Part shown: piece after piece, positions 1-46,598 of the stretch
How positions within the stretch are numbered: the stretch's first letter is position 1
Layout: every line of letters starts with the position of its first letter
Virus record (IMG/VR): IMGVR_UViG_3300037189_011856
Span: 1-48,662 of that record
Length of the DNA: 48,662 nt
Origin: a virus
Direction: 5' to 3' (one strand)
Made by a program: the position numbers and the translations under genes
The notes under the pieces: model-generated
The model's database searches: none
What the model saw: only the letters and a program-made list of their open reading frames with translations
Told to the model about the DNA's origin: nothing

Positions 1-118
1 AAATAACGAAATAGTTGCTTTTGATGGAAGAAATTATATGCATAAAGTTTGGAATAAAACTGGAAATTGGAGAGTGTCTGCAATTGTAGATACAAATGAA
101 ACAGAGTGGGCTTTATAA
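1..118 (+). CDS. 2OG-Fe(II) oxygenase-like protein, C-terminal fragment (5' end outside window)
   Basis: An open frame enters from the window edge (first full codon at base 2) and stops with TAA at 116-118, giving 38 residues. Its end, with AFDGRNYMHKVWN followed by GNWRVSAIVD, lines up with the C-terminus of the next gene (AFNGHDIQHQLVN, then GHWRVTAVME). That segment carries the distal metal-binding His and the 2-oxoglutarate-binding Arg in this type of double-stranded beta-helix oxygenase. In this copy the His corresponds to the H of NYMHKVWN and the Arg to the R of NWRVSA. The two genes are therefore tandem paralogues. Substrate unknown. The call rests on similarity to its neighbour, because only the tail is visible. 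Confidence 0.6.
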   Translation, partial: NNEIVAFDGRNYMHKVWNKTGNWRVSAIVDTNETEWAL

Positions 119-128
119 AGGAGGAATT

Positions 129-710
129 ATGTGGTTAGGTGATCCAATACAATATAAAGATTATGGTGCATTGCAAAAGCTCATGCAAGCCCTTTTAAAC
201 GATTATGCAGCATGGAGAAACAATTTTAGTATAGAAACTGATACTGTGAACGCAGACGAAAGATACGCAATGCCTGAAGCGAATAAAGGGGGTTTTAAGG
301 CTCTTCCTGTAATAGATGGTCGAAAAGTACAAGAAAAATGGAGTTTGGGTTGGAATCGAAGTATGAAAGCAGCATTTCAAATTGAAGGAATGATTGATAT
401 GTGTATTAATTTTATTCGTCCAGGAAAAATGCTTCCAGTCCATCATGATGGTTATGTTTGGGATTGGATACGTCAAAGTGTTGGAGATCCATCAATTAGT
501 GGATATACAGTAAGTTTTGGAATTGATATACCAGATCCAGAAAATCAAGCATTAATATTTGATGGAGTTAAAAGAGTTTGGAAAACTGGAGAATTTAGAG
601 CATTTAATGGACATGATATTCAACATCAATTAGTAAATAATGCAACTAATCCAGGACATTGGAGAGTAACTGCAGTGATGGAAATAGAGGGTAAATATTT
701 TAACATATAA
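129..710 (+). CDS. 2OG-Fe(II) oxygenase-like (aspartyl/asparaginyl hydroxylase type) protein
   Basis: 193 residues. A frame opens upstream at 96, but the start is placed at ATG 129 because a strong AAAGGAGG ribosome site lies at 117-124. A central HHD (HxD) motif in MLPVHHDGYVWDW, a distal His in DIQHQLVNN and an Arg in GHWRVTAVME form the expected 2-His-1-carboxylate iron site and 2-oxoglutarate anchor of the cupin-fold dioxygenases. Such genes are common in marine T4-like phages, where substrates (protein side chains, nucleotides or sugars) are rarely known. It follows a truncated paralogue by 10 bases, so the pair is a tandem duplication. Family assignment is from motif reading only; the substrate cannot be inferred. 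Confidence 0.65.
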   Translation: MWLGDPIQYKDYGALQKLMQALLNDYAAWRNNFSIETDTVNADERYAMPEANKGGFKALPVIDGRKVQEKWSLGWNRSMKAAFQIEGMIDMCINFIRPGKMLPVHHDGYVWDWIRQSVGDPSISGYTVSFGIDIPDPENQALIFDGVKRVWKTGEFRAFNGHDIQHQLVNNATNPGHWRVTAVMEIEGKYFNI

Positions 711-1204: not shown

Positions 1205-1777
1205 ATGAATATATTTTTTCTAGATAAAAATCCACAAATTTGTGCGACAATGCACTGCGATAAGCATGTAGTTAAAATGATTATAGAATATGCGCAGTTA
1301 TTGTCGACTGCGCATCGCGTTCTAGACGGCAATCCTGTAAATTCAAAATCTATCAATAATCGCAAATACACTTCCTATAATCACCCAACAATGAATGATG
1401 TGTTGTATAAAGCAACAATGAAAAATCATCCGAGTGCTATATGGGTTCGTGAGAGTAAAACTCATTATGAATATCTTTATACATTATGGGTTTCTTTATG
1501 TAATGAATATACTCATCGATATAATAAAATACACAGCACCTATTCTAAATTAAAAGATGCTTTATCTATTACTCCAAAAAATATTCCAGTTTTATCTTTT
1601 TCAGAACCACCACCAGCAATGAAACATTTTCCACAATGTATAGTTCCAAATAACTCTATTCAATCTTATCATAATTATTATAGAGTTGCAAAAGCATACT
1701 TCGCTAAATGGACTAATAGATCTATTCCAGATTGGTATCTAAATAAAAGTAAAGGATTAGAACATGCCAATATATAG
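1205..1777 (+). CDS. conserved phage protein of unknown function, 190 aa
   Basis: The N-terminus, MNIFFLDKNPQICATMHCDK followed directly by HVVKMIIEYAQLLSTAHRVL, belongs to a family I know from marine T4-like phages, where it has no established function. The conserved His and Cys residues (HCDKHVVK), NHP near residue 77, and an EYTHRYNKIHSTY helix could form a metal or nucleic-acid site, but that is speculation. No signal peptide or membrane segment. ATG 1205 has no strong ribosome site. The gene overlaps the next by 14 bases, suggesting translational coupling. Confidence 0.7.
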   Translation: MNIFFLDKNPQICATMHCDKHVVKMIIEYAQLLSTAHRVLDGNPVNSKSINNRKYTSYNHPTMNDVLYKATMKNHPSAIWVRESKTHYEYLYTLWVSLCNEYTHRYNKIHSTYSKLKDALSITPKNIPVLSFSEPPPAMKHFPQCIVPNNSIQSYHNYYRVAKAYFAKWTNRSIPDWYLNKSKGLEHANI

Positions 1778-2765: not shown

Positions 2766-2925
2766 ATTATATTTAAACGGAGAAGATTTACAATGGGAAG
2801 AGGGTACTGTTGAAGAGTCTCCGAAAGACAAAGAACTAAAAGAAAAGGGTTTAAAAGGAATTAAACTTACTTACGACACTAATGAAGAAGAAAACGAATA
2901 TTCAGTATTTGGAACTAAATTGTAA
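2758..2925 (+). CDS. hypothetical acidic protein, 55 aa
   Basis: ATG 2758 lies within the last eight bases of the endolysin gene, and the stop codon TAA overlaps the next ATG by one base (TAATG). The product begins MTKLYLNGEDLQWEEG, is rich in Glu and Lys, and contains a predicted beta-helix-beta pattern ending in EYSVFGTKL. There is no membrane segment. Function unknown. Tight overlap on both sides supports it as a real gene. Confidence 0.6.
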   Translation: MTKLYLNGEDLQWEEGTVEESPKDKELKEKGLKGIKLTYDTNEEENEYSVFGTKL

Positions 2926-3602
2926 TGACCACTACACTTACCACTAAAAAGTGGTACACTCATATATCAACATCATTTCCTAAATTAGAAAAAATAGAAG
3001 GATCTACTCGAACCTATTTAACACCAACAGGAAAGAAATATCCATCAGTTACGAGTGTGACATCTTTAGAATCTGCAGCAGGAATCGCAGCATGGCGAGC
3101 ATCAATTGGGAATGAAAAGGCAAACGCAATATCTGGTAAAGCGATGAGAAGAGGAACTTCTATTCATAATCTTTGCGAATCGTATCTATTAAATGATGGT
3201 ATTGATGAGTCTATATTTGAATCGCATGAATTTAAACTATTAATTCCTTATTTGAATAAAATAGATAATATCTATGCATTAGAAACACCAATGTATAGTG
3301 ACCATTTAACTTCTGCTGGTACTGTAGATTGTATAGCTGAATATGATAAATCATTATGTGTAATTGATTTTAAAACAAGCAATAAAAGCAAAACAGCAGA
3401 TAAAATTAAAGGTTATTTTATGCAGACTTCTGCATATGCTGTTATGTTTGAAGAACATACTAAAATTCCTGTACCAAATATTAAAATTATAATGCTTGTA
3501 CAAAATCCACTATCAGTATTAATCTTTGATGCTAAAAGAAATGATTATATAAAAGATTATATAAAGTTAAGAGAAACATATAGAAAATTAAAAAATTTAT
3601 AA
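2925..3602 (+). CDS. PD-(D/E)XK family exonuclease
   Basis: 225 residues. The conserved core reads RGTSIH (H81), ...YALETPMYS (E120), SAGTVDCIAEY (D135), CVIDFKTS (D148, K150) and FMQTSAYAV (Q167, Y171). This is the arrangement of PD-(D/E)XK nucleases of the RecB/Cas4/lambda-exonuclease type found in T4-like marine phages. It probably degrades or processes DNA ends, in host DNA breakdown or recombination; which one cannot be told. It has no Cas4-like cysteine cluster. It sits between the lysis genes and the aminotransferase cassette, coupled by TAATG overlaps on both sides. Confidence 0.8.
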   Translation: MTTTLTTKKWYTHISTSFPKLEKIEGSTRTYLTPTGKKYPSVTSVTSLESAAGIAAWRASIGNEKANAISGKAMRRGTSIHNLCESYLLNDGIDESIFESHEFKLLIPYLNKIDNIYALETPMYSDHLTSAGTVDCIAEYDKSLCVIDFKTSNKSKTADKIKGYFMQTSAYAVMFEEHTKIPVPNIKIIMLVQNPLSVLIFDAKRNDYIKDYIKLRETYRKLKNL

Positions 3603-3694
3603 TGAATATAAAACAACATAAACCTAATATTTGGTTATTGCTAATTATTATTGGTTGGTTATTAGCTGTCGTATCCATTTTTTGTTACTTATGA
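3602..3694 (+). CDS. membrane microprotein, 30 aa
   Basis: It starts at ATG 3602, sharing the A of the upstream TAA, and stops at 3694 in an ATGA overlap with the aminotransferase start. The peptide is MNIKQHKPN followed by a hydrophobic span rich in Trp, Leu and Ile and ending SIFCYL. It has a basic N-terminus and almost no C-terminal tail. It could be a functional membrane peptide or mainly a coupling leader for the next gene. Confidence 0.45.
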   Translation: MNIKQHKPNIWLLLIIIGWLLAVVSIFCYL

Positions 3695-4920
3695 TTGAAT
3701 TAAAACCAAATAGCACTCAAGAACATATTAAAGAAATTGCCTTTACAGAAAAATATTGGGTACATTATTTAAATGCACCTCCACATTTAGAAATACAATC
3801 TGGTAATGCTGCTTTCGGTTTAGGTTATCAAGCTGAAGATTTAAGAGATATATTTTCAAAAAATAAAATAGATTTTATTCGTGGGAATAGTGGTGAAACA
3901 AGTGAAGCTGTTGAAAAACTAAATGAGACACTTTGTTCTACTGCAAATATGGAAAGTATCGCTTATGCAGTTTCAGGCTCAGATGCAAACGAAGCTGCCA
4001 TTTATATGCATGATACTTATTGGGTAAATATTGGAAGACCAAAAACACATTTAGTAAGTTTTTATCCTTGCTATCATGGAACTACATATTTAAATCGACA
4101 ATTTAAAAATGATATGCTTCCGAGCAAAGAACTAAGTCGTGTTAAGATGATTCGTGGTAAAGAATGGTACACGGACGCTGAACGTATAGAACACGAAACA
4201 ATGCTTACCGATTCTTTTATTACCACTTTACAAGCAAATCCAACTATTGGTGGATGTATAATGGAAAGTATGCCTTGGAATGAAACGATTGCACCATATA
4301 GTCAAGAATTTTGGAAAACTGTTCGACAAATTTGTGATGAATTTAATATATTAATGATTGTTGATGATGTAGCAGGATATGGTGGTAAAGTAGGAACACT
4401 TTTTACACATACATATTATGGAGTAACTCCAGATATTGTAACAATCGGAAAAGCATTAACAAATGGAATGGTTCCATTAAGTGCAGCATTAGCGAATGAA
4501 AAAGTTACAAAAGGAGTTCGTAAAAAGAATTGGGATTGGGGGCACACTTGGCAACCAAACATGTACGGAGTAGAACTTGCAAATAGAGTAATTGAGATAT
4601 TAAATTCTAAAGGTTATTTAACAATAGATCATCAAAATTACATTGGTAAAAAGATAAAAGAATTAGAAACATTCCTTGTGAATGAAAAACTTGCGACATC
4701 TATAATTGGTAAAGGTTGCTGGAGATCAATTCAAACTAATCCCATTGCAACCCCTATTGGTTTATATCATTTAAGTAATGCTGGAATGGCAGCAACTACT
4801 TCTCATAAAATGATTAAACTAATTTTGCCACTGATTGTAGATGACGAATATTTTGACGAATTAAAAGCGAGAACGACTTTATGTTTAACAACTAGAAAAG
4901 AGGAGATAGAAAACTTATGA
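3691..4920 (+). CDS. class III PLP-dependent aminotransferase
   Basis: 409 residues from ATG 3691. A longer frame upstream (from 3631) is rejected because the ATGA overlap with the preceding peptide and the family's usual N-terminus favour 3691. Class III (fold type I) marks are present: AVSGSDANEAA (93-103, phosphate binding), CYHG (127-130), IVDDVAGYGG (223-232, Asp contacting the pyridine nitrogen) and TIGKALTNG with the Schiff-base lysine K254. Relatives are glutamate-1-semialdehyde aminomutase and omega-amino acid transaminases. The usual DEVxxGFGRTG is replaced by DDVAGYGGKVG, so the substrate is unclear. It is a metabolic gene in a phage and is coupled to the next gene. Confidence 0.85.
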   Translation: MIELKPNSTQEHIKEIAFTEKYWVHYLNAPPHLEIQSGNAAFGLGYQAEDLRDIFSKNKIDFIRGNSGETSEAVEKLNETLCSTANMESIAYAVSGSDANEAAIYMHDTYWVNIGRPKTHLVSFYPCYHGTTYLNRQFKNDMLPSKELSRVKMIRGKEWYTDAERIEHETMLTDSFITTLQANPTIGGCIMESMPWNETIAPYSQEFWKTVRQICDEFNILMIVDDVAGYGGKVGTLFTHTYYGVTPDIVTIGKALTNGMVPLSAALANEKVTKGVRKKNWDWGHTWQPNMYGVELANRVIEILNSKGYLTIDHQNYIGKKIKELETFLVNEKLATSIIGKGCWRSIQTNPIATPIGLYHLSNAGMAATTSHKMIKLILPLIVDDEYFDELKARTTLCLTTRKEEIENL

Positions 4921-5396
4921 ATGAAATAATAAATGAACAAATGGAACCGATTGCTCCTTGGTGGATAAATTATTCAGAGGGCATCCCATCATTTGTCGAC
5001 GAATACAAATCAAGATTATTAGGATTATCGAACAAAGATCGAACATTTGTAAATACTATTGCATTAGCAACTGCATTTACTCTTAAATCACCAGATCTAT
5101 TACATGATATATCTCAAACAATGTTTGACGATAGACAAGCCGATTTAAGAGATGATATAATTCGAATGTCAGCAGAAGCAACTGAAGATTTTATTACTCG
5201 AACAGATTTACTTTGTTCTCAAGATAATGAGTCTTCTGATTTAGAAGCACAGGTAAGATACGCAATCGCAGTTGCAGGAAGATTCGATAAATCAGTAAAA
5301 AATGCTCATTCAAAAGCAAATATATCATTACCAACAGACGAAGAATCTATAAGAGAATTAGTTGCTTTTGTTACAGTAATTGCGAAATTACTCTAA
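4917..5396 (+). CDS. hypothetical helical protein, 159 aa
   Basis: It starts at ATG 4917 in an ATGA overlap with the aminotransferase stop; a second ATG follows at 4921 in another frame. The sequence is predicted all-helical and acidic, with helices such as NTIALATAFTLKSPDLLHDI and VRYAIAVAGRFDKSVKNAHS. It has one Cys, no membrane span and no motif I recognise. Coupling to the aminotransferase suggests a shared job, for example as partner or substrate carrier. That is inference. Confidence 0.65.
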   Translation: MNEIINEQMEPIAPWWINYSEGIPSFVDEYKSRLLGLSNKDRTFVNTIALATAFTLKSPDLLHDISQTMFDDRQADLRDDIIRMSAEATEDFITRTDLLCSQDNESSDLEAQVRYAIAVAGRFDKSVKNAHSKANISLPTDEESIRELVAFVTVIAKLL

Positions 5397-5537: not shown

Positions 5538-5834
5538 ATGAAGCCATATAATAAAAACTTTCGGTCTAGAGATCGTCAAAATTTTGATCCTACACGAGAT
5601 AAACGTTCGAACTATGTTCGACCAAAAGAAACAGGAATTACTGTTTTCGTGGAGGAAGGAAAATTAGAACAAGCCATCCGACGATTCAAAAAGAAAGTAG
5701 ATCGTGCTGGGATCATTAAAGAAATACGTGATCGTCAAGCATATTCGAAACCAAGCGAGAAGAGAAAATTAGCTAAAGAAGCAGCGAGAGTTCGCTGGCA
5801 TAAACAAAAAAAGCTAATGGACAGATACATGTAG
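5538..5834 (+). CDS. rpsU: ribosomal protein bS21 homologue
   Basis: 98 residues. Residues ~34-95 match bacterial bS21: ITVFVEEGKLEQAIRRFKKK, then VDRAGIIKEIRDRQAYSKPS, then EKRKLAKEAARVRWHKQKKL. bS21 binds the platform of the 30S subunit near the anti-Shine-Dalgarno and helps initiation. Phage copies are thought to exchange into host ribosomes and bias translation. The first ~33 residues (MKPYNKNFRSRDRQNFD...) are an Arg/Lys/Asp-rich extension absent from the ~71-residue E. coli protein. It stands alone between a CTAAATA box and a hairpin. Confidence 0.93.
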   Translation: MKPYNKNFRSRDRQNFDPTRDKRSNYVRPKETGITVFVEEGKLEQAIRRFKKKVDRAGIIKEIRDRQAYSKPSEKRKLAKEAARVRWHKQKKLMDRYM

Positions 5835-30222: not shown

Positions 30223-33200
30223 ATGAGTATAAATTTCAATGTAACACCTTATTTTGACGATTACGCTGAAACGAAACAGTTTCTTCGTGTATTGTTTCGT
30301 CCAGGATATGCTGTTCAAGCACGAGAATTAACTCAACTTCAAACACTTCTTCAAAATCAAATAAGTAGATTTGGAAACCATATATTCAAAAATGGATCGA
30401 TGGTTGTTCCTGGAGCAGTGAACTATGATAATACAATTCATTTTGTAAAACTTCAAGATCTTTTCGGAAATACAAACGTAACATCTTATCTAACATCTTT
30501 TAGAGATAAAGTTATTACTGGACAAACTTCTGGTGTAAAAGCAGTAGTAATTGATACATCTGAATGCGGATGTATGGTAGAAGGAGATAGCAATGTTGCA
30601 ACTCTTTATTATAAAATTCAAGATACTGCTGATGATGGAACGACTAAACGTTTCATTCCAGGAGAAATTATTACTGCATACGCAAGTGATAACACAACAG
30701 CAGCCAATTATAGATTAACAGCAAATCAAACTACAGATATATCAGTTACCATTCGAACATTCGGTGACACTGGTATTGCTGGTACAGTTTATACAAATAA
30801 TTCAACAACAGACGTATTAGGATATGCAACATCTGTTGAAGTTGAACAAGGAATTTATTATATTGATGGCTTTTTTGTTACAACTGAAGAACTACATCTT
30901 TATATTGGAAGATTTACAAACACAGTAACTGCTCGTGTTGGGTTTGAAGTTACTGAATCTATCGTAACACCTGAACAAGATTCAACATTAAATGATAATG
31001 CTCAAGGAAGTAATAACTATGCTGCTCCAGGAGCTCATCGTTATAAAATTAATTTATCACTAAAAAGATTAACGATAGATTCTACAGACACAATTAAATT
31101 TGTAGAATTATTACGTGTAAAAGATGGTATTATTCAACACAAAGTTGAAAAAACATCATATGCTGAAATAGAAAAAACATTCGCAAGAAGAACTTTTGAT
31201 GAATCTGGTAGCTATGAAGTAACAAAATTTAATTTAACAGCAAGAGAACATTTAATATCAGGAACAAATAGAGGTGTGTTCCCTGCGAGTCCAGCGACTC
31301 CAGTTTCTGGTGTTACATATGGAAGTGCAGACAAAGTTGCAATCGTTGTAGATCCAGGAAAAGCATATATCGAAGGATATGAAGTTGAAAGCACAATTTC
31401 TCAATATTTAAGTATTAATCGTGCAAGACCAATTAATGGAATTGAAAATGGTCACGTATCAAGACTTGACGATCAACCAATCGGAACATCTGTAGGAAAT
31501 TACGTTTTAGTAGATGGTGTGATTGGATTACCAGCTGTTGATACTTATGGATTAGTTTATTTGTGGAATGGTTCAACAATGCACGTATCTGCACCAACAA
31601 TCGGAACAACAACAAATTCAGGAAAAACAGGTTTAATCGGAACAGCAAGACTTCGTTCTATTCAATTACATTCTTCAAGTTATTCATCACCAGAATTTAA
31701 ACTTTCTCTTTTTGATATTAAATTAGAAAGTGGATATAACATTGAAAGAGATGTAAAATGGATTACTGATGTTGGTGCGACTGGTGTAATTAATTTCTAT
31801 TGTACAACTGATCAAAATACTGCAGGGACATTAGTTCCACTATTAGGAACAGTATCAGGAACTTCTGGTGCTGCAACTCTTACAGGAGTTGGAACAAGAT
31901 TTCAAGATGAATATAAAGTGGGTGATGCGGTATTACTTACAACTTCAAATACATTTGTTGGTCATGTACTATCGATTGCATCTCCAACTTCTTTAACTCT
32001 TGATCGAAATTTAGCTGCAACTTACACAGGAGTTGTTTATGCTCGTGGTGCGACTGCAGTTTATAATCCTGAATATACATCATTAGTATTTGATACAGGA
32101 ATTGAAAACACTAAAACATTACGTGGATACGATTCAGCAACTGCACAAGATAGTGTACTTTCTTCAACTCATACGATTCGAAGAACTATTACTGCAACAA
32201 CAAACGCAGGTGGTGAGTGGGTTCATACTCTTACAACCCCAACAGAATTCTTTTTATCAGATTCAGATTTAACTAACTATACATTATTTGATAACGTAGC
32301 AAAAACAGTTGTAAACATTTCTGCTTCAACTATTGCATTTGATAGCGATTCAAATCGTAAGACAGTTACAATTTCAGGATTATCTAATGCAAGAAGTTAC
32401 ACATTAATTACAAGCATATTACAAACTGGTGTATCTGCAAGAGAAAAAATTAAAACACTTACATCTACAACTGCAGATATAGTTTCTGCGATTAACGTAA
32501 CTGCAAAATCAGTTATATTACCACATGCAGATATATTTAATATCGTTTCTGTAAGTATGACTCCAGGAAACTATTCAGCATATTCTTCATCTGGGGCTGT
32601 AGATATTACAGATCGTTTCACATTAGATAATGGTCAAAGAACTACACATTATCAAAAAGGTGCTTTAGTTTTAAAAGAAGGAGCAGGTGTTCCAACAGGT
32701 GCTTTAAGAGTATCTTATAGATATTTCACATATAGTGGAACAGGAAATTATTTCTCAGTAGATAGTTATAGTTCAACTATTTCTTATGATCAAATACCAT
32801 CTTTTAAATCTACGAACCCAGATGGTACTACATCAACTGTATTTTTACATGACGTAATTGATTATCGTCCAGTGATTGAAGGATTAAATACATTTTCACC
32901 AAGCATACCAAAAATTGGAACAGATTTTAATACAAGTATCGCAAACTATCTTCCTCGTTGGGATAAAATAGTTCTTGATAGCGTCGGAAACTTTAATATA
33001 TTAACTGGAGTGCCAGCATTAGAACCAAAACAACCTGAAGATCCAAAAACTGGAATGATATTAGGATCTGTGTTTTTACCAGCTTATACTAAATTAGCAT
33101 CTGATGTAGTATTATTTAAAAGAGATAATCGTCGTTATACGATGAGAGATATTGGATTCTTAGAAAAAAGAATTTCAAATTTAGAATATTATACAAGTTT

Positions 33201-36200
33201 AACTCTTTTAGAAAAAGAAACTGAATCATATTCAATTAAATCAGCAACTACAGGATTAGACAGATTTAAGAACGGATTCCTTGTTGATCAATTTAGTGGT
33301 CATGGTGTAGGAAACGTACAACATCCAGATTATCGTATCGCAGTTGATTCAGCGAAAAATGAATTAAGACCAATGCACTTTACTGATGCATTAGATGTAA
33401 TTGAAAATCTAGATTCAGGTCCACAAAGAGCAAGTAGAGATTATCAAAGAACGAATGATTTAATTACATTACCATATACAGAATCATCTTTCATATTTAA
33501 TCCAAACGCATCAAGAACTATCGATGTAAATCCATATAAGATTGGTGCTTTCAAAGGAGAAATAGAATTAACACCAGAAGGAGATTTCTGGAAAGAAACA
33601 GATCGTCGTCCTGATTTACAAGTAACGGATAATAATGGATATGATGCGATTCGATTCCTTGCTGAAAAAGCAGGAGTAATGGGAACGCAGTGGAATGAAT
33701 GGTCATATAACTGGACAGGTTCAACTGATCAAGTAAGAAATTACGAAACATGGAACGCAGGATTTCAAGAAACAATTACTACACAAACAGGAACACAATC
33801 AAGAGAGGGAATACGTACATCTCTTTCAGGAACAACAAATTCTATTAATTATGGTGATAGAGTTGTAGATGTATCTTATATTCCTTTTATAAGAACAAGA
33901 CCAGTTGCATTTATTGGTTGGAATTTAAAACCTGATACGAATTTTTATGCTTTCTTTGATAATACAAGAGTTGATGCAAGTTATATAAACCCTGCTGACG
34001 TTTTCCGTGTAACTAAAGTAGTTGGTGCTGCAGATTTAAACTTTAACGTACAATCAACTATTCAATCAGTTTTATCAGATTCACCAGCAAGAACTGATGC
34101 GAATGGTATATCACAACCAGCATTTTATTTCGGTGATGTATTAAAGAACGAAGAACATACGGCGACTCGAGTTTTAACAATTGCAAATGTTACAAATGCT
34201 CTTGGCAACAGTTCATTTACACTTACAGTATCAAGTGCTTCTGGTATTCTTCCAGGACATCATGTACACATGTATAACTTTGATGCTGTTCGAGCAAACC
34301 CAGCAGTTACATCGAATGTAATTGAGAATAATATTACTTCTACAATTGTAACGTATGGATCGAATCATTCAAAACAATTAAATTTAAAAATCTTTAGAGT
34401 AAAAGCAGTATCAGGAACAACGATTACATTAGAAAATATTGATGGATCGCTAATATATCCTTTTGATGCATATTCAACAACTGCATATGCTGCAGGAGAT
34501 GGTGGTAAATTACAACGTCTTCAAGCAAGTGCTGTTGCAAATTTTGAAGGATATCGTACATCGTCAACTGTTCGTGATCTTCACATGATTAATATTAAAA
34601 GAGGATTTGCTATCGGTGACGTATTAGTTGGTGAAGTAGATATAGGAAATGGTGCAAAAAACCGAGTTACAATTACAAGTATTAATGGAAGCACTGACGC
34701 ATCAACTCCACCTACTTTAAAAACAACTGGAAGTCAATTAAGAACTGATGTAAATGGATCTATTTGCGGTGTGTTTACTATTCCTTCTCCTAATTTTAGA
34801 ACAGGAGAACGTACATTTAAATTAATTGATAACGTTTCAAATAGTGAATTTGATTTCGATTCTAAAGGATCTGCAACTTATATTGCTTCAGGAACTACAC
34901 TTTCAAAAGAAAGAACAATCGTAAACTCAAGAGATGTAAGATTCGTTCAAGATCGTTTATTTGAAGAAATACCTGCAAGAAGAACAACAACTACAACTCG
35001 TCTTCTTTATACAATTAGAAGAGGACACGATCCGATTGCGCAAACATTTGTGGTATCATCTAAAGGTGGTGCTTTTGTTTCTTCAGTTGATTTATATTTT
35101 GAAGAAGCAGGTAATAGACCAATTATAGTAGAATTGCGTGTTACAAATAATGGTGTTCCATCTTCAAGAGTAGTACCATTTACAACAATTACAAAAAATC
35201 CAAACGAAATTAATATATCATCAAATGGATCGGTTGCAACTAACTTTAAATTTTTAGCACCAGTTTATTTACAAGATAACGAAACATATGCAATTGTTGT
35301 AAGAACAGACGAACCTGGAGCTAAAATTTTTATTTCTGAACTGGGTAAAACAGATTTACAAACTACAAATATTATTACTCAACAGCCATTAACTGGATCT
35401 TTATATCTTTCACAAAACTCTTCAGAGTTTCAAATTAATCCATTATTAGATATGAAGTTTAGATTATACTCTTGCACTTTTGATACAGGAGTGATCGCTG
35501 ATGTAGAATTAAAAGCAAACCCACCAATTACATTTAAGTTAGATGAAAATCCTTTTGAATTTACACCCAACTCACCACATGTAAGAGTAAAAGCAAGAAA
35601 TCATGGATTCACATTTAACGATATTGCTGTTATTTCTGGTGTTCCTGTAGGAATTTATGGTGCAAATGGAGTAAATGGTGCGCCAGATACATTATTAAAT
35701 GGATCTCACTTAGTTTTAGCAGAAGGATTGACAAAAGATTCTTTCGTGGTTCAATTACAAACAACTGATCCGAATAGTACAAATTTATTAACTGGAACAA
35801 CTGCAAACTTTATTAAAGGTAATTATGGTGGAACAAATGTAAGATGTTCACGTCAATTAAATCTTGATGCATTGTATTTAAAAACAAATGATTTAACATT
35901 TACAGATACTAAAATTGAATATTATATATCAGCTTCTGACTCGGCAAATGTAGCAACTGACTTTTTACCGATTGTTGCGAATGAAAACTATTATTTCAAT
36001 TCAAGAAAAATTATTAAATCATACGAAAATCAAACAGTAGTGAGCACATCACCACTATTAAAGAGACCATCATTAAAGATTCGTACAAGACTATTCTCAA
36101 CAAACGCAAATTTATCGCCTGTAATTGATTTACAAAAGATGAGTGTTTATGCGATATCAAATTCAATTGATGATAAATCATCAGCTAATCTAAACGTATC

Positions 36201-37428
36201 AGGAATTGACGACCGAAACATATTAGTTGCGAATACAGTAACTGATGCTGATACATTTATAACTGGAACAGGAACAATTACAACAAGCACTTCTTCAACT
36301 TCAGTAAGTGGTTCAGGAACTTTATTTACTACTGAAGCAAGAGTTGGTGATACGATTCGTGTAGGAAATACTGCGATTGGTGTAATTTCTTCAATAACAA
36401 ACGCAACTACAATCGTATTAACTGCGAATGCTCTTGCAACAAATGCAAGTGGTGTTGCATATGAAATAGTATCTCGTGGTGTTGTAGAAATATCAAACAA
36501 TAATTCAGGAAATGGTCAATTAGTTACATGGATTGATGCTGCTGATAATTTATTAGCAAACACACAAATTGGTGCTGACTTAATATTAAATTCTGTACGC
36601 ACAGGAATTAATGGAACATATAATATTGCAAACGTAGTAGAGGAAAGATCTCTTGATCGTTATGCAGGTTCAGCTGATGGAAATAAAGTTACTGTAACAT
36701 TTAATTCAGCATTCTCTTCACTTCCAACAACAAATACAATATATTTGGATGTAGTACATGATTGGCTTGAATTTGATTTAGAAGGAACACAATCTTCAAA
36801 CTCATCTTCTACTTCAGTATCATCTTCAGTTGATAACACTTCAAGAATTGCTGCTGGTGATATATTAATTTCAACTACTTTATATGAGACAGTTACACCA
36901 GATGGTGGATCGAAACAAAGATTAGAGAAAAAAGTAGTAGGAACTGTTGCTTCTGTAACATCTGGAGCAATTACACTTACAGGAAATGCAACGACTACAA
37001 TTACAACTACTAAAATGGCAATACGAAGAACTTGTGCGTCATGGTCAATTAAACAATATGATGCATATGTAAGTGATTTTGCTCCAACAGGTGCAACTAA
37101 TTTAGCGAATTACATTACAAGAACATTGACATTAACAAATCCAGCAAATAATCTTAAGATATTATTTGACGCAAATATACCTATAAATACTAATTTAAAA
37201 TTATACTATCGAACATGGAATGATGAAGTAGTATTATCTAAATTAAGATGGATTGATACAGGATTTACATCATCTTCAAAAGATTCAATTGACGTATTTA
37301 AAGAAAGAATACATACATTAGAGTTATTATCAGCATATAAAAATATACAAATTAAAATTGTATTTAAATCAAGTAATTCAGTTTATGTGCCTAAAGTAAA
37401 GAATTTAAGAGTAATTTCTTATAGTTAA
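30223..37428 (+). CDS. DUF4815-type giant baseplate/tail structural protein
   Basis: 2401 residues, the largest gene in the window. It starts MSINFNVTPYFDDYAETKQF, then LRVLFRPGYAVQARELTQLQ and TLLQNQISRFGNHIFKNGSM, the DUF4815 signature of marine T4-like phages. In those phages this protein follows gp8 and takes the place of T4 gp10 and fibre-connecting proteins. Repeated beta modules (GTGT-F...VGD...) occur at ~540-610 and ~2010-2085. The middle (LPRWDKIVLDSVGNFN, KRISNLEYYTSLTLLEKETE) is typical. Weak ribosome site. Probably the peripheral baseplate; gp10 equivalence is inference. Confidence 0.8.
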   Translation: MSINFNVTPYFDDYAETKQFLRVLFRPGYAVQARELTQLQTLLQNQISRFGNHIFKNGSMVVPGAVNYDNTIHFVKLQDLFGNTNVTSYLTSFRDKVITGQTSGVKAVVIDTSECGCMVEGDSNVATLYYKIQDTADDGTTKRFIPGEIITAYASDNTTAANYRLTANQTTDISVTIRTFGDTGIAGTVYTNNSTTDVLGYATSVEVEQGIYYIDGFFVTTEELHLYIGRFTNTVTARVGFEVTESIVTPEQDSTLNDNAQGSNNYAAPGAHRYKINLSLKRLTIDSTDTIKFVELLRVKDGIIQHKVEKTSYAEIEKTFARRTFDESGSYEVTKFNLTAREHLISGTNRGVFPASPATPVSGVTYGSADKVAIVVDPGKAYIEGYEVESTISQYLSINRARPINGIENGHVSRLDDQPIGTSVGNYVLVDGVIGLPAVDTYGLVYLWNGSTMHVSAPTIGTTTNSGKTGLIGTARLRSIQLHSSSYSSPEFKLSLFDIKLESGYNIERDVKWITDVGATGVINFYCTTDQNTAGTLVPLLGTVSGTSGAATLTGVGTRFQDEYKVGDAVLLTTSNTFVGHVLSIASPTSLTLDRNLAATYTGVVYARGATAVYNPEYTSLVFDTGIENTKTLRGYDSATAQDSVLSSTHTIRRTITATTNAGGEWVHTLTTPTEFFLSDSDLTNYTLFDNVAKTVVNISASTIAFDSDSNRKTVTISGLSNARSYTLITSILQTGVSAREKIKTLTSTTADIVSAINVTAKSVILPHADIFNIVSVSMTPGNYSAYSSSGAVDITDRFTLDNGQRTTHYQKGALVLKEGAGVPTGALRVSYRYFTYSGTGNYFSVDSYSSTISYDQIPSFKSTNPDGTTSTVFLHDVIDYRPVIEGLNTFSPSIPKIGTDFNTSIANYLPRWDKIVLDSVGNFNILTGVPALEPKQPEDPKTGMILGSVFLPAYTKLASDVVLFKRDNRRYTMRDIGFLEKRISNLEYYTSLTLLEKETESYSIKSATTGLDRFKNGFLVDQFSGHGVGNVQHPDYRIAVDSAKNELRPMHFTDALDVIENLDSGPQRASRDYQRTNDLITLPYTESSFIFNPNASRTIDVNPYKIGAFKGEIELTPEGDFWKETDRRPDLQVTDNNGYDAIRFLAEKAGVMGTQWNEWSYNWTGSTDQVRNYETWNAGFQETITTQTGTQSREGIRTSLSGTTNSINYGDRVVDVSYIPFIRTRPVAFIGWNLKPDTNFYAFFDNTRVDASYINPADVFRVTKVVGAADLNFNVQSTIQSVLSDSPARTDANGISQPAFYFGDVLKNEEHTATRVLTIANVTNALGNSSFTLTVSSASGILPGHHVHMYNFDAVRANPAVTSNVIENNITSTIVTYGSNHSKQLNLKIFRVKAVSGTTITLENIDGSLIYPFDAYSTTAYAAGDGGKLQRLQASAVANFEGYRTSSTVRDLHMINIKRGFAIGDVLVGEVDIGNGAKNRVTITSINGSTDASTPPTLKTTGSQLRTDVNGSICGVFTIPSPNFRTGERTFKLIDNVSNSEFDFDSKGSATYIASGTTLSKERTIVNSRDVRFVQDRLFEEIPARRTTTTTRLLYTIRRGHDPIAQTFVVSSKGGAFVSSVDLYFEEAGNRPIIVELRVTNNGVPSSRVVPFTTITKNPNEINISSNGSVATNFKFLAPVYLQDNETYAIVVRTDEPGAKIFISELGKTDLQTTNIITQQPLTGSLYLSQNSSEFQINPLLDMKFRLYSCTFDTGVIADVELKANPPITFKLDENPFEFTPNSPHVRVKARNHGFTFNDIAVISGVPVGIYGANGVNGAPDTLLNGSHLVLAEGLTKDSFVVQLQTTDPNSTNLLTGTTANFIKGNYGGTNVRCSRQLNLDALYLKTNDLTFTDTKIEYYISASDSANVATDFLPIVANENYYFNSRKIIKSYENQTVVSTSPLLKRPSLKIRTRLFSTNANLSPVIDLQKMSVYAISNSIDDKSSANLNVSGIDDRNILVANTVTDADTFITGTGTITTSTSSTSVSGSGTLFTTEARVGDTIRVGNTAIGVISSITNATTIVLTANALATNASGVAYEIVSRGVVEISNNNSGNGQLVTWIDAADNLLANTQIGADLILNSVRTGINGTYNIANVVEERSLDRYAGSADGNKVTVTFNSAFSSLPTTNTIYLDVVHDWLEFDLEGTQSSNSSSTSVSSSVDNTSRIAAGDILISTTLYETVTPDGGSKQRLEKKVVGTVASVTSGAITLTGNATTTITTTKMAIRRTCASWSIKQYDAYVSDFAPTGATNLANYITRTLTLTNPANNLKILFDANIPINTNLKLYYRTWNDEVVLSKLRWIDTGFTSSSKDSIDVFKERIHTLELLSAYKNIQIKIVFKSSNSVYVPKVKNLRVISYS

Positions 37429-41033: not shown

Positions 41034-44000
41034 ATGCCTAAAAAACTACTTGCTACAAAATATGAAATTAGCGTTTCAAATAACTCTGTTACTATTGAGG
41101 GTAACATACCTCTTGAACGTTTATTATTAATCACTAACGTTACTGCAAATAAAATTATTTACAACTTTGCTGATTCAGCATTAGGTGTAACGAATCGTAT
41201 TTACGACGCAGGTTCAGAAAAAACTACATTTGTTCTAAGAGGATCATTATCAAATGCTGCATTAGGTCCGACAACAATCAATGATGATTTACAAATATTT
41301 ATAGAAGAAGAATTTGCTCGTATTGGTTTCGAAGAAGCCATGATCGACCCAGTGAACAAATTGCGTGTATCAAATCCAGAAAACTTAATTGATACAGACT
41401 TTGAATATGGCACACAATCTACAAAATGGGAAACACTTCAAACAGTTTTAAATATTCCTACAATTTATTCTACAGCAGGTGACGCATCACTTGAAGGATT
41501 AGTATCTATCACATTGACAGCAGGGTCAAAACAAGTAAAATGTATTTTTACTACTGCTCATAACTTAGCAGTTGGAGATCCAATCATTATATCAGGAGTA
41601 AGCGATATAACTGCAGAGGGTGCATTCCTTGTAACTGGTATTCCTGTTGCAACCGAATTATACTACGAAATAGATCAAACTGCTTTTGAAACTAAAATTG
41701 TAAATGGTTCATATACAAACGTAATTCCTGCAAAATTTTTTGAAGGATCAAATCTTCAAATAGATCTTTCGAATGCGGATGGTGCAATTTCTACAAATGC
41801 AGCAAGTCCATCAACTATTACAGTAAGAACATCAGATACACATGGATTAGCTGTTGGTACAAAAATTTATTTAAGACAAACAATTGGTCCTAAAGTACTT
41901 ACAATTTCAAATCCAGTTGGAACTGCTCCTGATGGTCGTCCTTATATTGATTCGTCAGCAACACTTACAGTATCAAATAGTGTATCTTCAAATACAGGAA
42001 TTGGTGCATCATCTCTTGCGTATGACTATCCTGTAGTAACTTGGGATTGGGAACCAACTTATGTTAAATATTTACAAGCAGCTGATGTTGATGCTGCTAC
42101 GGACATAGTTACATGGAATTCTCATGGATTTACAAATAATGCAGCATTATTATTTCAAACTCAAGTTCGTGGAACAGAAGTAAGTCCATCTACAAATGGT
42201 GGTCTGACTGACGGAACAGTTTACTATGTTAAAGTTTTAACTGCAAATACTTTTGAATTGTATAGTGATTATGGAACACTTGCTTCTAAAATGAATTTAA
42301 CAGCAATTGATTTAACAAAAGGATATCCACGTCTTGGATTAGTTTACAAAATTGAAGCTAAAAAAGATAATTTAAGATATACTCCTTTTTATACAAGAAA
42401 CGTAAGAACAGGTACAACAGGAAGTTACACTCCAGGAGATGTTAACAACTCAAATACAAATTCGTTTACTTGGGACGTTACATCATTTATTGGTGGTAGT
42501 CGTATTCCAGTTTCTGCAATAATTTATCAATTGTATCATTCTGGTACAAACATGGCAGGAAGCCCTGTAAACATTTACTACTTAGCAAGAAATTATTTAA
42601 ATCAAGGATCTGATAATATTTACTATTCATTAGCCGCAAAAGGATCAGATACTGCATACGAATATCCAAATACAGATGTAACTAGATGTTTATATCTATC
42701 TTCTGGAAGTTATTATATTGATATACAATATCAATTTAGTGCGATTAACAGAGATAAATTTGGTAATCCAACATCATCCTACTACCATCAATACTTTTTG
42801 TCTGTAGACGATGTTCCAACATCAATTAATGACGCACATTCTGGTTCTGATTTTGCTTCATCATCATTCGGAAAAGGTGGAGTTTCAGGAAATAAATTGA
42901 TTGCATTTCAAGGTCGTTCAAATGGTGCATCATCAACAAACGGATCTTCAGATGCATATTCTTACCAATCAAATACAGTAAACAATGGAAGATATGGAAC
43001 TGGAAATATACCATATGTTGCACTTGCAACATCTACAAACAGTTATGGTGCAATAACAGTAGATTATAACGATCCAGGTTATGTAAGTTTCACTTCTTCA
43101 TCAAATATTTTTTATGGATTCGCAAACGAATTAACAGCATTTAAAAATTTATTATATGTGCCGAGTCATGGACTTGTAAATAATGAAGTTGTAACTCTTG
43201 CAGTTACAGGTTCTGGTTATTCAACAACAAACAGATTTGGTTTCGTTGATTCTTCTGGTGCGTTTGTGCCAATCACATCAACATCAGTTCAATGTGACGT
43301 TAATGTTATATCATCAAATTATATAAGATTAACATCAAAAATTGCTCCTTTCACAAATGATATAGCTTCTTATCCAATAGCATTTACTATATCTTCAGAA
43401 AAAGCAAATTCGTTATATAATACAATTTATATTCGTAACCACAAAATACAAGGAAGTGCTCTTGCAACATATACAACAGCAGGAACAGTCATTGGTGGTT
43501 TAACATCTGGAACAGTTTATGCTCTTTCATTTGTAAATGACTCAAGATTAGTCATTAGAGATTCTAACATTGTTTCTGGATCTGCATCTGCAACAACATC
43601 TTCATTCGGAAGCACTTCTATTTCTGCGAATCAATCTTTCACAGTAAATATAGAAACTCCTCTTGGTGTTACACCAACTAATGCTACAATTGTAGGTGTT
43701 CAATTTAGAGGATATTTCTCAGGAACAACAAGATACGTTACAATTAAATTCGCTGATAATATCAATTATGATATTGGTGTTATCAATGGTCAAAACACTA
43801 GCTCATACTTAGATGAACCAACTTGGGTTTCTAAAAACATATCAGCATTCTTAACAGGATCACCAAAAGGAGTAGTTGTTACAGCTTCTCCAACATCTAG
43901 TGTGAACAGAGTTGTTCCAGGAATGACAAACTGGTGGGAAATAAGATTCAGTGTAACAGCAACTACTGGTGATATTCTTTTATCATCATCTGGTTCAGGT

Positions 44001-46598
44001 GCGCAAAATTTCACTGTAAATAACGTTTCAGGAGCATATGATGGTATATACACTATCGCAACAACTCCTACGACTGATTCATTTACATTCGGACTAGATT
44101 TTACAATTCCAGCAAGAACATATAGCTTTAACGCAAGATCAACAGCAACTGGTGGTGCAGTAAATTCTACTGACGATACAATTGTAATTGGAACATCAAA
44201 TCCTTATGCTCCACACAATTTATTTCCAGGAGAAAGAATTACTTACACTACAGGAGCTGGAAATACAGATATCGTAAACGATCCAGCTGTAGATGACTAT
44301 TTTGTAATCGTAAGAGATCAATATACTATTTCATTATCGAACTCTTATGTATCTGCACTTGCAGGACAATTAGTACAATTAGCTCCAGCAGCAAGTTCTC
44401 AAACACAAACATTATCTACTACAAATATTGTGAAAACTGCTGTTCAATCTGGAACAGTTTCTGGAGTAAATAATAAAAGAATTTTAACTGGTTCTGGAAC
44501 TAAATTCTTATCTAAATTTAAACGATTTGATTCAATCTATATTTTAATTAGCAATAGACTGAGAAAATTTATTGTTGATAAAATTACTTCAGATACTGAA
44601 ATGACGTTAGACGTATCATCAGACGCATTCCCATCTACATTTAATAGTGCTCAATATTTTACTATTACAGCTGTAAATTTAAGACCTGATGGTTATTCTT
44701 TACATAAATCGTTTGACGGAGGTGTTGACATTACTGCTGGTACATCACCAAATAGTCGTATTTGTCGTCAATCTCGTAAATACTTTAGATATCAATCTGG
44801 TAAAGGTATTCAAAACTCTTACGCGATTAACTTCTCACCATTAAAGACTACACAAAGTTTAACATATTCTTTAGTGAGTGGTATTCACGTGATTACAGTT
44901 GTGTGCCAAGAACCACACAATTTAAAAGTAAACGATTCAATTATAATTGATGCTGCTACTGTTGATATCGGTAACAACGTATATAACGGAACATTTAGCG
45001 TAAGATCAATTGTAAATAATACTACATTTACATATGCTGTAGGACAAGCCCCAGTTCAACAAAAAGCTGGTGGATTCCCAGAATATGGAAGAAATAGTTG
45101 GAGAGATTCTTATATTCGAGCAGGTATGTTCGATGATTCGAATGGTTTCTACTTTGAGTATGATGGTCAAAATTTAAGTGTTGTAAGAAGATCTTGTACA
45201 TTACAGCTTTCAGGAACATGTACTGCTACAAGAAACAGTCAGAGAATTATAGGTATTAATACATCATTCACAGGACAATTAGTTGTAGGAGATCACGTTT
45301 CAGTTCGTGGTCAAATTTATCGAATTGTTGCTGTAAATTCTGACAGCTCATTAACAGTTCAACCACCTTATCGTGGATTAACAGCGAGTAATATTAAAAT
45401 TACAAAGAGAGTTGACACGAAAATTCCTCAAAGTTCATGGAATATAGATCCATGCGATGGTACAGGTGTAAATGGATATAATTTAAATATTCATAAAATA
45501 CAAATGTGTTATGCTGATTATTCTTGGTACGGAGCAGGTAAAATACGTTTCGGTACTAAAGATGCAAAAGGTCATATTCATTATCATCATGAATTTATAC
45601 ATAACAATAAATTAAATGAATCATACTTTAGATCTGGTAACCTTCCAGGAAGATATGAAATTGAAAATGGTGTAAGTCCATCATCTTCACCTACATTATT
45701 CCACTTTGGTACATCGGTGATTATGGATGGTACATATGATGATGACGGAGCATATTTATTTACAGGTAATTCAAAACCATTCGTATATGCTCAAGGTACA
45801 ACAGACACAATTACAGGATCTTCAGCATCGTCATTCCAAGAAATTACATTAAACGCAAGACGTGTTTATGTGTACTCTTTCGGAGTTTCTGCTGCTGATG
45901 CCGCAAAAGCAAAAGTTGGACAATTAATTAGTGAAACATCTGCTCCAGGAACAAACATTCCAGACGGATCGTATGTTGCTCAGGTTAGAGTTGAAGGAGC
46001 TAACTCACGTATTTGGACTTCATATCCTGCAACATCATCTTCACCTACAAACTTGAATGAGATTGCAACCTCAACATCATTCACTATCGGTGAAAACGCA
46101 TTTGGAAATGGTGCAGTTGACTTAACTCGTCCTATTCCATTAATTTCTATTCGTCTTGCTCCAGCAGTTGACTCAAGTTTAACAGGTGTGATCGGAGAAA
46201 GAGAAATTGTAAATAGAATGCAATTAATTCTAAACTCGGCGTCGATAAACACAAATAAAGACGTGAACGTTTTCTTTATATTAAATGGTATTCCATCGAA
46301 ATTAAATTTCGATAAAGTGCCATCTCCATCATTATCTAATCTGATATCGCATGATACAGGTGACGTGATTAAAGATGGTGTACCGATCTTTTCTACGAAA
46401 GTATCAACAGGTTCTACAAATATCGATCTAAAAGGATTGATTGATTTAGGAAACTCAATATTAGGTGGTGACTCTATATTCCCGAGTGGTCCAGACTTAT
46501 TAACAGTGGCAATTCAGCCAACAGATACGTCGACGATCACAGCAGCATCGCCAATGTTTGTGTCAGGAAAAATATCTTGGTCTGAATCACAAGCATAG
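41034..46598 (+). CDS. giant virion structural protein, 1854 aa (VrlC-like candidate)
   Basis: AATAAGGAATATAGAAA precedes ATG 41034. The N-terminus (MPKKLLATKYEISVSNNSVT... EEEFARIGFEEAMIDPVNKL, RVSNPENLIDTDFEYGTQST) is the typical start of a large structural protein in T4-like marine phages, sometimes called VrlC. The body is beta-rich with repeated HxLxVGD-type turns (e.g. AHNLAVGDPIIISGV, SHGLVNNEVVTLAV, PHNLKVNDSIIIDA). Two GTGTxF modules lie near 1135-1215 and 1388-1458. Probably a long whisker or fibre or peripheral baseplate part. The exact role is unknown. Confidence 0.68.
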   Translation: MPKKLLATKYEISVSNNSVTIEGNIPLERLLLITNVTANKIIYNFADSALGVTNRIYDAGSEKTTFVLRGSLSNAALGPTTINDDLQIFIEEEFARIGFEEAMIDPVNKLRVSNPENLIDTDFEYGTQSTKWETLQTVLNIPTIYSTAGDASLEGLVSITLTAGSKQVKCIFTTAHNLAVGDPIIISGVSDITAEGAFLVTGIPVATELYYEIDQTAFETKIVNGSYTNVIPAKFFEGSNLQIDLSNADGAISTNAASPSTITVRTSDTHGLAVGTKIYLRQTIGPKVLTISNPVGTAPDGRPYIDSSATLTVSNSVSSNTGIGASSLAYDYPVVTWDWEPTYVKYLQAADVDAATDIVTWNSHGFTNNAALLFQTQVRGTEVSPSTNGGLTDGTVYYVKVLTANTFELYSDYGTLASKMNLTAIDLTKGYPRLGLVYKIEAKKDNLRYTPFYTRNVRTGTTGSYTPGDVNNSNTNSFTWDVTSFIGGSRIPVSAIIYQLYHSGTNMAGSPVNIYYLARNYLNQGSDNIYYSLAAKGSDTAYEYPNTDVTRCLYLSSGSYYIDIQYQFSAINRDKFGNPTSSYYHQYFLSVDDVPTSINDAHSGSDFASSSFGKGGVSGNKLIAFQGRSNGASSTNGSSDAYSYQSNTVNNGRYGTGNIPYVALATSTNSYGAITVDYNDPGYVSFTSSSNIFYGFANELTAFKNLLYVPSHGLVNNEVVTLAVTGSGYSTTNRFGFVDSSGAFVPITSTSVQCDVNVISSNYIRLTSKIAPFTNDIASYPIAFTISSEKANSLYNTIYIRNHKIQGSALATYTTAGTVIGGLTSGTVYALSFVNDSRLVIRDSNIVSGSASATTSSFGSTSISANQSFTVNIETPLGVTPTNATIVGVQFRGYFSGTTRYVTIKFADNINYDIGVINGQNTSSYLDEPTWVSKNISAFLTGSPKGVVVTASPTSSVNRVVPGMTNWWEIRFSVTATTGDILLSSSGSGAQNFTVNNVSGAYDGIYTIATTPTTDSFTFGLDFTIPARTYSFNARSTATGGAVNSTDDTIVIGTSNPYAPHNLFPGERITYTTGAGNTDIVNDPAVDDYFVIVRDQYTISLSNSYVSALAGQLVQLAPAASSQTQTLSTTNIVKTAVQSGTVSGVNNKRILTGSGTKFLSKFKRFDSIYILISNRLRKFIVDKITSDTEMTLDVSSDAFPSTFNSAQYFTITAVNLRPDGYSLHKSFDGGVDITAGTSPNSRICRQSRKYFRYQSGKGIQNSYAINFSPLKTTQSLTYSLVSGIHVITVVCQEPHNLKVNDSIIIDAATVDIGNNVYNGTFSVRSIVNNTTFTYAVGQAPVQQKAGGFPEYGRNSWRDSYIRAGMFDDSNGFYFEYDGQNLSVVRRSCTLQLSGTCTATRNSQRIIGINTSFTGQLVVGDHVSVRGQIYRIVAVNSDSSLTVQPPYRGLTASNIKITKRVDTKIPQSSWNIDPCDGTGVNGYNLNIHKIQMCYADYSWYGAGKIRFGTKDAKGHIHYHHEFIHNNKLNESYFRSGNLPGRYEIENGVSPSSSPTLFHFGTSVIMDGTYDDDGAYLFTGNSKPFVYAQGTTDTITGSSASSFQEITLNARRVYVYSFGVSAADAAKAKVGQLISETSAPGTNIPDGSYVAQVRVEGANSRIWTSYPATSSSPTNLNEIATSTSFTIGENAFGNGAVDLTRPIPLISIRLAPAVDSSLTGVIGEREIVNRMQLILNSASINTNKDVNVFFILNGIPSKLNFDKVPSPSLSNLISHDTGDVIKDGVPIFSTKVSTGSTNIDLKGLIDLGNSILGGDSIFPSGPDLLTVAIQPTDTSTITAASPMFVSGKISWSESQA

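What the first reader, a model, noticed from the sequence alone, without database searches (positions are those of the whole stretch)
3602..5396. Translationally coupled metabolic cassette: membrane peptide, class III aminotransferase, helical partner
Three genes overlap through TAATG/ATGA junctions (3602, 3691-3694, 4917-4920). The aminotransferase keeps its PLP lysine (K254) but has a divergent DDVAGYGGKVG in place of the usual DEVxxGFGRTG, suggesting a special substrate. The 159-residue partner has no known domain. A phage with its own transaminase module, possibly tied to a membrane peptide, is not something I know as a described system.
Basis: partly seen in the sequence, partly recalled or inferred. 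Interest (0 to 1): 0.55.

Follow-up and report, generated by a model that had tools for sequence, protein, structure and literature searches.

The report
Phage aminotransferase with a dedicated partner
Uncultured T4-like phages carry their own divergent amino-group-transferring enzyme, consistently followed by the same small helical protein, which suggests that these viruses make or modify an amine-containing compound during infection.

Summary
The three overlapping genes are there as described. The aminotransferase (AT1) is a catalytically intact class III PLP enzyme. In IMG/VR, all 20 AT1 loci with downstream sequence have the partner gene (PA) next. The membrane peptide is absent from the divergent relatives. 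AT1 belongs to a phage family that forms one clade against 25 cellular class III enzymes, with fixed active-site changes (E-x-x-P-W, DD for DE, GK for GR, HTWxP). The 'odd' DDVAGYGGKVG motif marks one branch of this family. Sister aminotransferases follow a small intact short-chain dehydrogenase (SDR) in 30 of 34 loci. Where an AT1 contig extends far enough, a sister (AT2) lies about 20-22 kb upstream (8 of 8). PA, domainless by sequence, is predicted to have an AhpD-like fold without the CxxC. Best reading: AT1, probably using glutamate, aminates (or deaminates) an unknown carbonyl substrate with PA as obligate partner, within a larger hydroxyl-to-amine chemistry of this phage lineage. Substrate and PA's role are unknown. 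No cultured phage in the searched collection was seen to have it. New variant of a known kind.

The parts
3691..4920 (+). AT1: class III PLP aminotransferase, 409 aa, phage-specific family
   Evidence: Pfam Aminotran_3 3e-42; universal catalytic residues conserved; relatives
4363..4395 (+). AT1 motif DDVAGYGGKVG (residues 225-235); D225 aligns with the invariant Asp of the DE motif; D226 and K233 are phage-diagnostic
4450..4452 (+). codon of K254, the PLP Schiff-base lysine
4917..5396 (+). PA: 159-aa helical partner, predicted AhpD/CMD-like fold without CxxC
5103..5129 (+). PA motif HDISQTMFD (residues 63-71); H63, D64, I65, Q67, F70 and D71 invariant in the six PA sequences aligned
3602..3694 (+). 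30-aa single-span membrane peptide; overlaps AT1 but is lineage-specific and not judged part of the unit
2925..3602 (+). flanking gene: PD-(D/E)XK exonuclease (phrog_298); syntenic in relatives
5538..5834 (+). flanking gene: ribosomal protein bS21 homologue; downstream of PA in relatives
96..710 (+). Asp_Arg_Hydrox-like (putative 2-oxoglutarate oxygenase) gene, last of a tandem array in relatives; possible pathway neighbour, not shown to belong

Best explanation
AT1-PA is a conserved two-gene unit of uncultured T4-like phages. Shown by sequence: AT1 is a catalytically complete class III PLP aminotransferase of a phage-specific clade, and PA follows it in every relative with sequence available. 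Inferred: AT1 takes the amino group from glutamate, because a basic residue (K/R376) stands where ArgD, GabT and PatA carry an Arg, and passes it to a carbonyl compound whose pocket differs from all cellular class III enzymes compared (Trp196, Asp226, Lys233, Trp287). Inferred: PA, an AhpD-like helical protein without the peroxidatic CxxC but with its own His-Asp-Ile-x-Gln motif and an invariant Glu, either binds AT1 or processes its substrate or product. Inferred: the SDR-AT2 pair about 20 kb upstream does the matching oxidation (alcohol to carbonyl) and a second amination, so that hydroxyl groups, perhaps placed by the phage's 2-oxoglutarate-type oxygenases, become amines. The membrane peptide is a lineage-specific neighbour.
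For: Intact catalysis: H129, E192, D225, K254 and T286 are identical in 26 of 26 phage and 25 of 25 cellular sequences. Phage clade 100/100 support. PA is downstream in 20 of 20 AT1 loci with downstream sequence, down to 44% AT1 and 31% PA identity; 2 further AT1 loci end at the contig edge. The ATGA overlap is kept in 17 of 20 PA loci. Purifying selection: over 21 pairs dN/dS is 0.068-0.275 for AT1 and 0.143-0.271 for PA. The SDR is directly upstream in 30 of 34 sister loci, with TGxxxG, Ser and YxxxK intact in the eight aligned. AT2 sits about 20-22 kb upstream of AT1 in 8 of 8 contigs that reach that far. Fold: AhpD top hits, prob 1.00, TM 0.57-0.62 for the first six rows and row 8; Z 12.5 down to 9.4 for fifteen AhpD/CMD/peroxidase-related entries, then 5.7 and 3.8.
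Against: No substrate, product or physical AT1-PA contact is shown. Conserved gene order in a compact phage genome can persist without interaction. The PA model is moderate (pLDDT 65; three of five models near 41), its best Foldseek E-value is only 0.035, and profile-profile comparison with AhpD is not significant. Four of 34 sister loci lack an SDR, so the oxidation-amination link is not universal. The clade test used only 25 cellular sequences, and long branches meet at the join. The residue argument for glutamate is indirect.
Confidence: 0.5

Rival explanations
1. One reading: the membrane peptide is the anchor or substrate of AT1 and PA, for example a daptide-like modified peptide made by oxidation and transamination.
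For: TAATG/ATGA overlaps. A 34-aa membrane peptide also sits before AT2 in G002/L034 and L035. All 26 family members match the daptide aminotransferase profile weakly, and the published daptide route combines an oxidative decarboxylase with an aminotransferase (PMC10036551, passages seen).
Against: Divergent AT1-PA loci have no such peptide. Its close-relative comparison shows 0 synonymous and 5 nonsynonymous changes. The daptide profile scores 100 bits against a cut-off of 450, below argD and bioA. The peptide ends in Leu, whereas daptide precursors end in Thr.
Confidence: 0.05
2. AT1 is a class III-fold enzyme doing other PLP chemistry (aminomutase, ammonia-lyase or decarboxylase) rather than intermolecular transamination.
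For: The class III fold hosts such enzymes; the (R)-1-hydroxy-2-aminoethylphosphonate ammonia-lyase profile is matched by 26 of 26 members. The active-site changes are concerted, and the Glu after QG in several E. coli enzymes is replaced by Asn in AT1.
Against: No profile shown reaches its cut-off. K/R376 aligns with the carboxylate-binding Arg of glutamate-using transaminases (role recalled). The linked SDR in sister loci fits ketone amination.
Confidence: 0.2
3. AT1 and PA are neighbours by inheritance only; PA belongs to another process such as redox or virion assembly.
For: Gene order around them is conserved as a whole: exonuclease, AT1, PA, bS21, hydrolase. A small ORF separates AT1 and PA in L072-L074, and L153 has no overlap.
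Against: The slot before AT1 changes freely while AT1-PA persists. Overlap is kept in 17 of 20. PA was found in no record without AT1.
Confidence: 0.2
4. PA is a redox helper (AhpD-like) working with a peroxiredoxin, protecting AT1 or its product.
For: AhpD-like predicted fold. In L153 a Redoxin/AhpC-TSA gene (Pfam 3.9e-26) overlaps the start of AT1.
Against: The CxxCxxxH of AhpD is absent from all aligned PA proteins. The redoxin was seen in one locus only, L153; other loci have different genes there.
Confidence: 0.05

Closest known systems
Class III aminotransferases of the ArgD/AstC/GabT/PatA and BioA/omega-transaminase groups
   Same: Near whole-length Aminotran_3 match; SG[ST], H129, E192, D225, K254 and T286 conserved; basic residue at the carboxylate-Arg position as in ArgD, GabT and PatA
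   Different: Far below NCBIfam cut-offs (128 bits against 372-410 for the argD models); DD instead of DE, GK instead of GR, PW instead of QG-like, HTWxP instead of xTYxG-like; separate clade
SDR-AT2 and SDR-AT(385 aa) pairs of the same and related phage lineages
   Same: Same aminotransferase family, 33-44% identity to AT1; AT2 co-resident in AT1 phages
   Different: Preceded by a short-chain dehydrogenase, no PA; DDVAxCWGK motif
Oxidoreductase plus aminotransferase pairs converting hydroxyl to amine (daptide MpaC/MpaD; GnnA/GnnB of lipid A, recalled)
   Same: The logic of oxidation followed by PLP amination
   Different: No daptide precursor or RRE protein seen; AT1 itself has no adjacent oxidoreductase; no closer homology than class III in general
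AhpD / carboxymuconolactone decarboxylase-like proteins
   Same: Predicted all-helical fold
   Different: No CxxC; no sequence-profile support; own HDI[ST]Q motif

Membership tests
Class III aminotransferase (Pfam PF00202) | whole-domain profile match above gathering score | tested here: met
   145 bits against 30.5, residues 33-391
Class III aminotransferase (Pfam PF00202) | Schiff-base Lys, N1-binding Asp, phosphate-binding Thr | tested here: met
   K254, D225 and T286 align in all 51 sequences; roles recalled
Class III aminotransferase (Pfam PF00202) | transaminase activity | not testable with these tools
   needs assay
ArgD / AstC / ornithine aminotransferase / BioA (NCBIfam) | score above curated cut-off | tested here: not met
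   best is argD at 128.2 of 410.05 bits; none of the 25 families shown (of 71 matched) reaches its cut-off
Daptide aminotransferase | NF041821 cut-off and adjacent precursor ending in Thr | tested here: not met
   100.3 of 450 bits; the 30-aa peptide ends in Leu and is not conserved
AhpD / CMD (PF02627) | CxxCxxxH motif | tested here: not met
   absent from the 10 aligned PA proteins and from the L153 one
AhpD / CMD (PF02627) | profile match | tested here: not met
   no match in the window, with 12 of 14 control genomes positive; hhalign probability 1.7-3%
AhpD / CMD (PF02627) | AhpD fold | tested here: inconclusive
   predicted model, pLDDT 65, gives AhpD as top hits, Z 12.5; not solved
Short-chain dehydrogenase (sister loci) | nucleotide-binding TGxxx(G)xG, catalytic Ser and YxxxK | tested here: met
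   eight-sequence alignment: TG, IG, Ser and YxxxK conserved in all eight; but Pfam adh_short is only 0.00084, below cut-off, for one member and absent for another

The most novel reading that the evidence does not exclude
These phages carry a virus-owned biosynthetic route: ketoacyl synthase, SAM decarboxylase, amidinotransferase, tandem 2-oxoglutarate-type hydroxylases, SDR-AT2, AT1-PA and an FkbM methyltransferase together make or install a dedicated amine- or guanidine-bearing compound (a modified lipid, polyamine or virion/cell-surface group). PA would be a new cysteine-less class of AhpD-fold catalyst acting on the aminotransferase product.
Probability: 0.2. Interest if true: 0.85.

Novelty: new variant of a known kind. 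Interest (0 to 1): 0.52.

Why it matters
Phages usually borrow host metabolic genes that stay recognisable. Here a PLP enzyme family was found only in phages in the searches run, exists as two co-resident paralogues, and one of them has a fixed partner with no sequence relatives. That makes it a candidate for viral rather than host chemistry, and it can be tested directly because the unit is only two small predicted-soluble proteins. If the wider set of genes proves to be a pathway, it would be a virus-encoded biosynthesis of an amine product in aquatic bacteria.

Tried and rejected
Tried without result: DNA patterns for DD/E-V...GK in viral contigs returned only the known relative and one spurious GC-rich hit. 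In genome contigs 11 pattern matches, none encoding a relative by tblastn. AT1, AT2 and the 385-aa group in 50,697 phage records: only generic class III matches of 21-29% identity among the rows listed (40 of 46, 33 of 33, 12 of 40 records listed), often in records that look like bacterial DNA; PA had no match. The AT family profile in 289 genomes of one bacterial class and 369 of another gave best matches of 151 bits, generic enzymes. The PA profile in the same 289 genomes gave nothing, but without a positive control. Single-sequence fold of PA was poor. BFVD fold search gave nothing convincing. hhalign of PA against AhpD was not significant: E 0.015-0.029 against 0.06-0.97 for 8 shuffles.

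Rejected: the membrane peptide as a conserved part; a daptide-like RiPP; a redox AhpD role for PA.

Errors of mine: one search failed (script); one search read wrong strands and was redone; the first seven rows used a wrong offset, are invalid, and four of those genes were redone.

Papers: searches found no description of a phage class III aminotransferase with SDR or PA. Listings only were seen, except a term search of PMC9004378 (0 hits) and passages of PMC10036551. Only open-licence PMC papers are covered.

Full report
What is there. Window 3602-5396 holds three overlapping genes as described: a 30-aa membrane peptide, a 409-aa class III aminotransferase (AT1) and a 159-aa partner (PA), with TAATG, ATGA and ATGA junctions. 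K254 and DDVAGYGGKVG are correct. The record is a fragment of a T4-superfamily myophage. By the baseplate wedge protein, its nearest cultured relatives are Methylophilales phage Melnitz and Pelagibacter phages HTVC008M and Mosig, at 41-44% identity. Overlaps of 1 or 4 bases are frequent in the window, so conservation is the better test.

Relatives. AT1 alone found one near-identical contig, G002 (IMG/VR 3300017917_001739, 99% protein identity). That contig carries a second aminotransferase, AT2, 35% identical to AT1. An AT1+AT2 alignment found 23 loci, a PA alignment 20 loci, and a 26-member alignment 56 loci. Of these 56, 22 are AT1-type and 34 are sister types. PA follows AT1 in 20 of 22; the other two end 0-1 base after the match. 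No PA was found by a sister type (0 of 34, two of which end 2 bases after the match). Among the sister loci 30 of 34 have a small SDR directly upstream; the other four have neither SDR nor PA by tblastn and have oxygenase-like ORFs nearby, recognised by eye only. Many of these loci are near-copies: 6 of the first 23 aminotransferase proteins repeat another, and the 20 PA loci collapse to 9 distinct proteins, 10 with the window's.

The unit. In divergent relatives the order exonuclease, AT1, PA, bS21, cell-wall hydrolase is kept. ATGA overlap is kept in 17 of the 20 loci; in L072-L074 a 64-aa ORF intervenes. L153 (44% AT1, 31% PA) has no AT1-PA overlap, and a redoxin gene before AT1. The membrane peptide is missing from the divergent loci; five inspected ones have a 55-60-aa or longer soluble ORF there instead. 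Window against L002, the peptide has 5 nonsynonymous and 0 synonymous changes; AT1 has an uncorrected dN/dS of 0.092 and PA 0.326. Over 21 divergent pairs AT1 is 0.068-0.275 and PA 0.143-0.271. Both are under purifying selection.

Two aminotransferases per phage. Of 20 PA-bearing records, 8 also hold an AT2, about 20-22 kb upstream of AT1 (in G321 the AT2 is cut by the contig end). The other 12 have 16.3 kb or less upstream of AT1, so AT2 could not be seen (coordinates). AT1 and AT2 are therefore paralogues kept together.

The aminotransferase family. In a tree of 26 phage and 25 cellular sequences (five E. coli enzymes, 20 top profile matches from one class of bacteria) the phage rows are one side of a branch with 100/100 support and stem 2.87. 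Long branches meet there, so its place within class III is unsure. Residues H129, E192, D225, K254 and T286 are identical in all 51 sequences. P195, W196, D226, A228, K233, H285, W287 and P289 are fixed in the phage rows (26 of 26). At the same positions 24 of 25 cellular rows have G196, 25 of 25 have E226 and 25 of 25 have R233. K376 (20 of 26) or R376 (6 of 26) aligns with the Arg that ArgD, GabT and PatA carry. From recalled knowledge of GABA and ornithine aminotransferases this Arg binds the carboxylate of glutamate; hence the inference of a glutamate donor. No NCBIfam model shown reaches its cut-off. Best cellular matches to the family profile are 151 bits in 289 and 369 genomes of two classes.

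The partner. No sequence family was found over cut-off. With 10 aligned relatives AlphaFold2 gives an all-helical model, pLDDT 65, pTM 0.66. Foldseek's top eleven PDB rows are AhpD chains and a putative antioxidant-defence protein (2gmy), with E 0.035-0.33 and probability 0.96-1.00; no row reaches 0.001. VIA-align rows 1-15 are AhpD, CMD and peroxidase-related entries (two titled only as unknown function, two as the debrominase Bmp8) at Z 12.5-9.4; row 16 is 5.7, row 17 is 3.8. Helical bundles can give Z near 13 by chance, but the gap below the family speaks for it. The AhpD CxxC is absent. W15, N18, Y19, H63, D64, I65, Q67, F70, D71, R78, D79, E87, E110 and R114 are invariant across the six sequences aligned. 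hhalign against AhpD is not significant. PA is AhpD-like at best, not a member.

Mechanism. Most likely AT1 is a glutamate-dependent aminotransferase for a carbonyl substrate, PA is its obligate partner, and SDR-AT2 is a parallel oxidation-amination pair. Shown: conserved genes, intact catalytic residues, fixed pairing, selection. Inferred: direction, donor, substrate, contact. The same genomes hold a ketoacyl synthase (87% identical between G002 and G020), SpeD (83%), an amidinotransferase homologue (68%; PDB sequence matches are inosamine-phosphate amidinotransferase, SxtG, HsvA and arginine:glycine amidinotransferase) and tandem Asp_Arg_Hydrox-like genes. That is the basis of the bolder pathway reading, which I rate at 0.2.

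Novelty. No cultured phage in the 50,697-record collection has the family in the rows listed, and nine paper searches found no description. I file it as a new variant of a known kind: a phage-specific class III subfamily with a new partner.

Noticed in passing
L025:8105-11333 (G002) and L055:551-3853 (G020): Ketoacyl synthase, SAM decarboxylase and amidinotransferase-like genes in a row; the ketoacyl synthase is 87% identical between lineages whose AT1 is only 49% identical.
   Followed up: partly
window 96-710; L025:11323-14259; L055:3853-7410: Tandem array of at least four diverged Asp_Arg_Hydrox-like genes upstream of AT1 in the longer contigs.
   Followed up: partly
L153:2302-2823: A redoxin (AhpC/TSA-type) gene overlaps the start of AT1 in the most divergent AT1-PA locus, notable because PA resembles AhpD.
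   Followed up: partly
L166, L168, L171, L185: Sister aminotransferases with motif DDVACCWGK and neither SDR nor PA; a 105-109-aa unknown protein precedes them and several oxygenase-like ORFs (by eye) lie upstream.
   Followed up: partly
L032:7158-7913: Fatty-acid desaturase (Pfam 4e-18) overlapping the end of an SDR-linked aminotransferase.
   Followed up: no
L024:18391-19230: FkbM-type methyltransferase (Pfam 3.9e-18) two genes after AT2, also in G020, L040 and L043.
   Followed up: no
window 5538-5834: Phage-encoded ribosomal protein bS21 of 98 aa (Pfam 2.3e-17), conserved downstream of PA in relatives.
   Followed up: partly
window 30223-37428 and 41034-46598: Two very long ORFs of 2401 and 1854 aa in the structural region, not analysed.
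   Followed up: no
window 1205-1777: Pyrimidine dimer DNA glycosylase-like protein (Pfam 4.9e-6, phrog_624).
   Followed up: no
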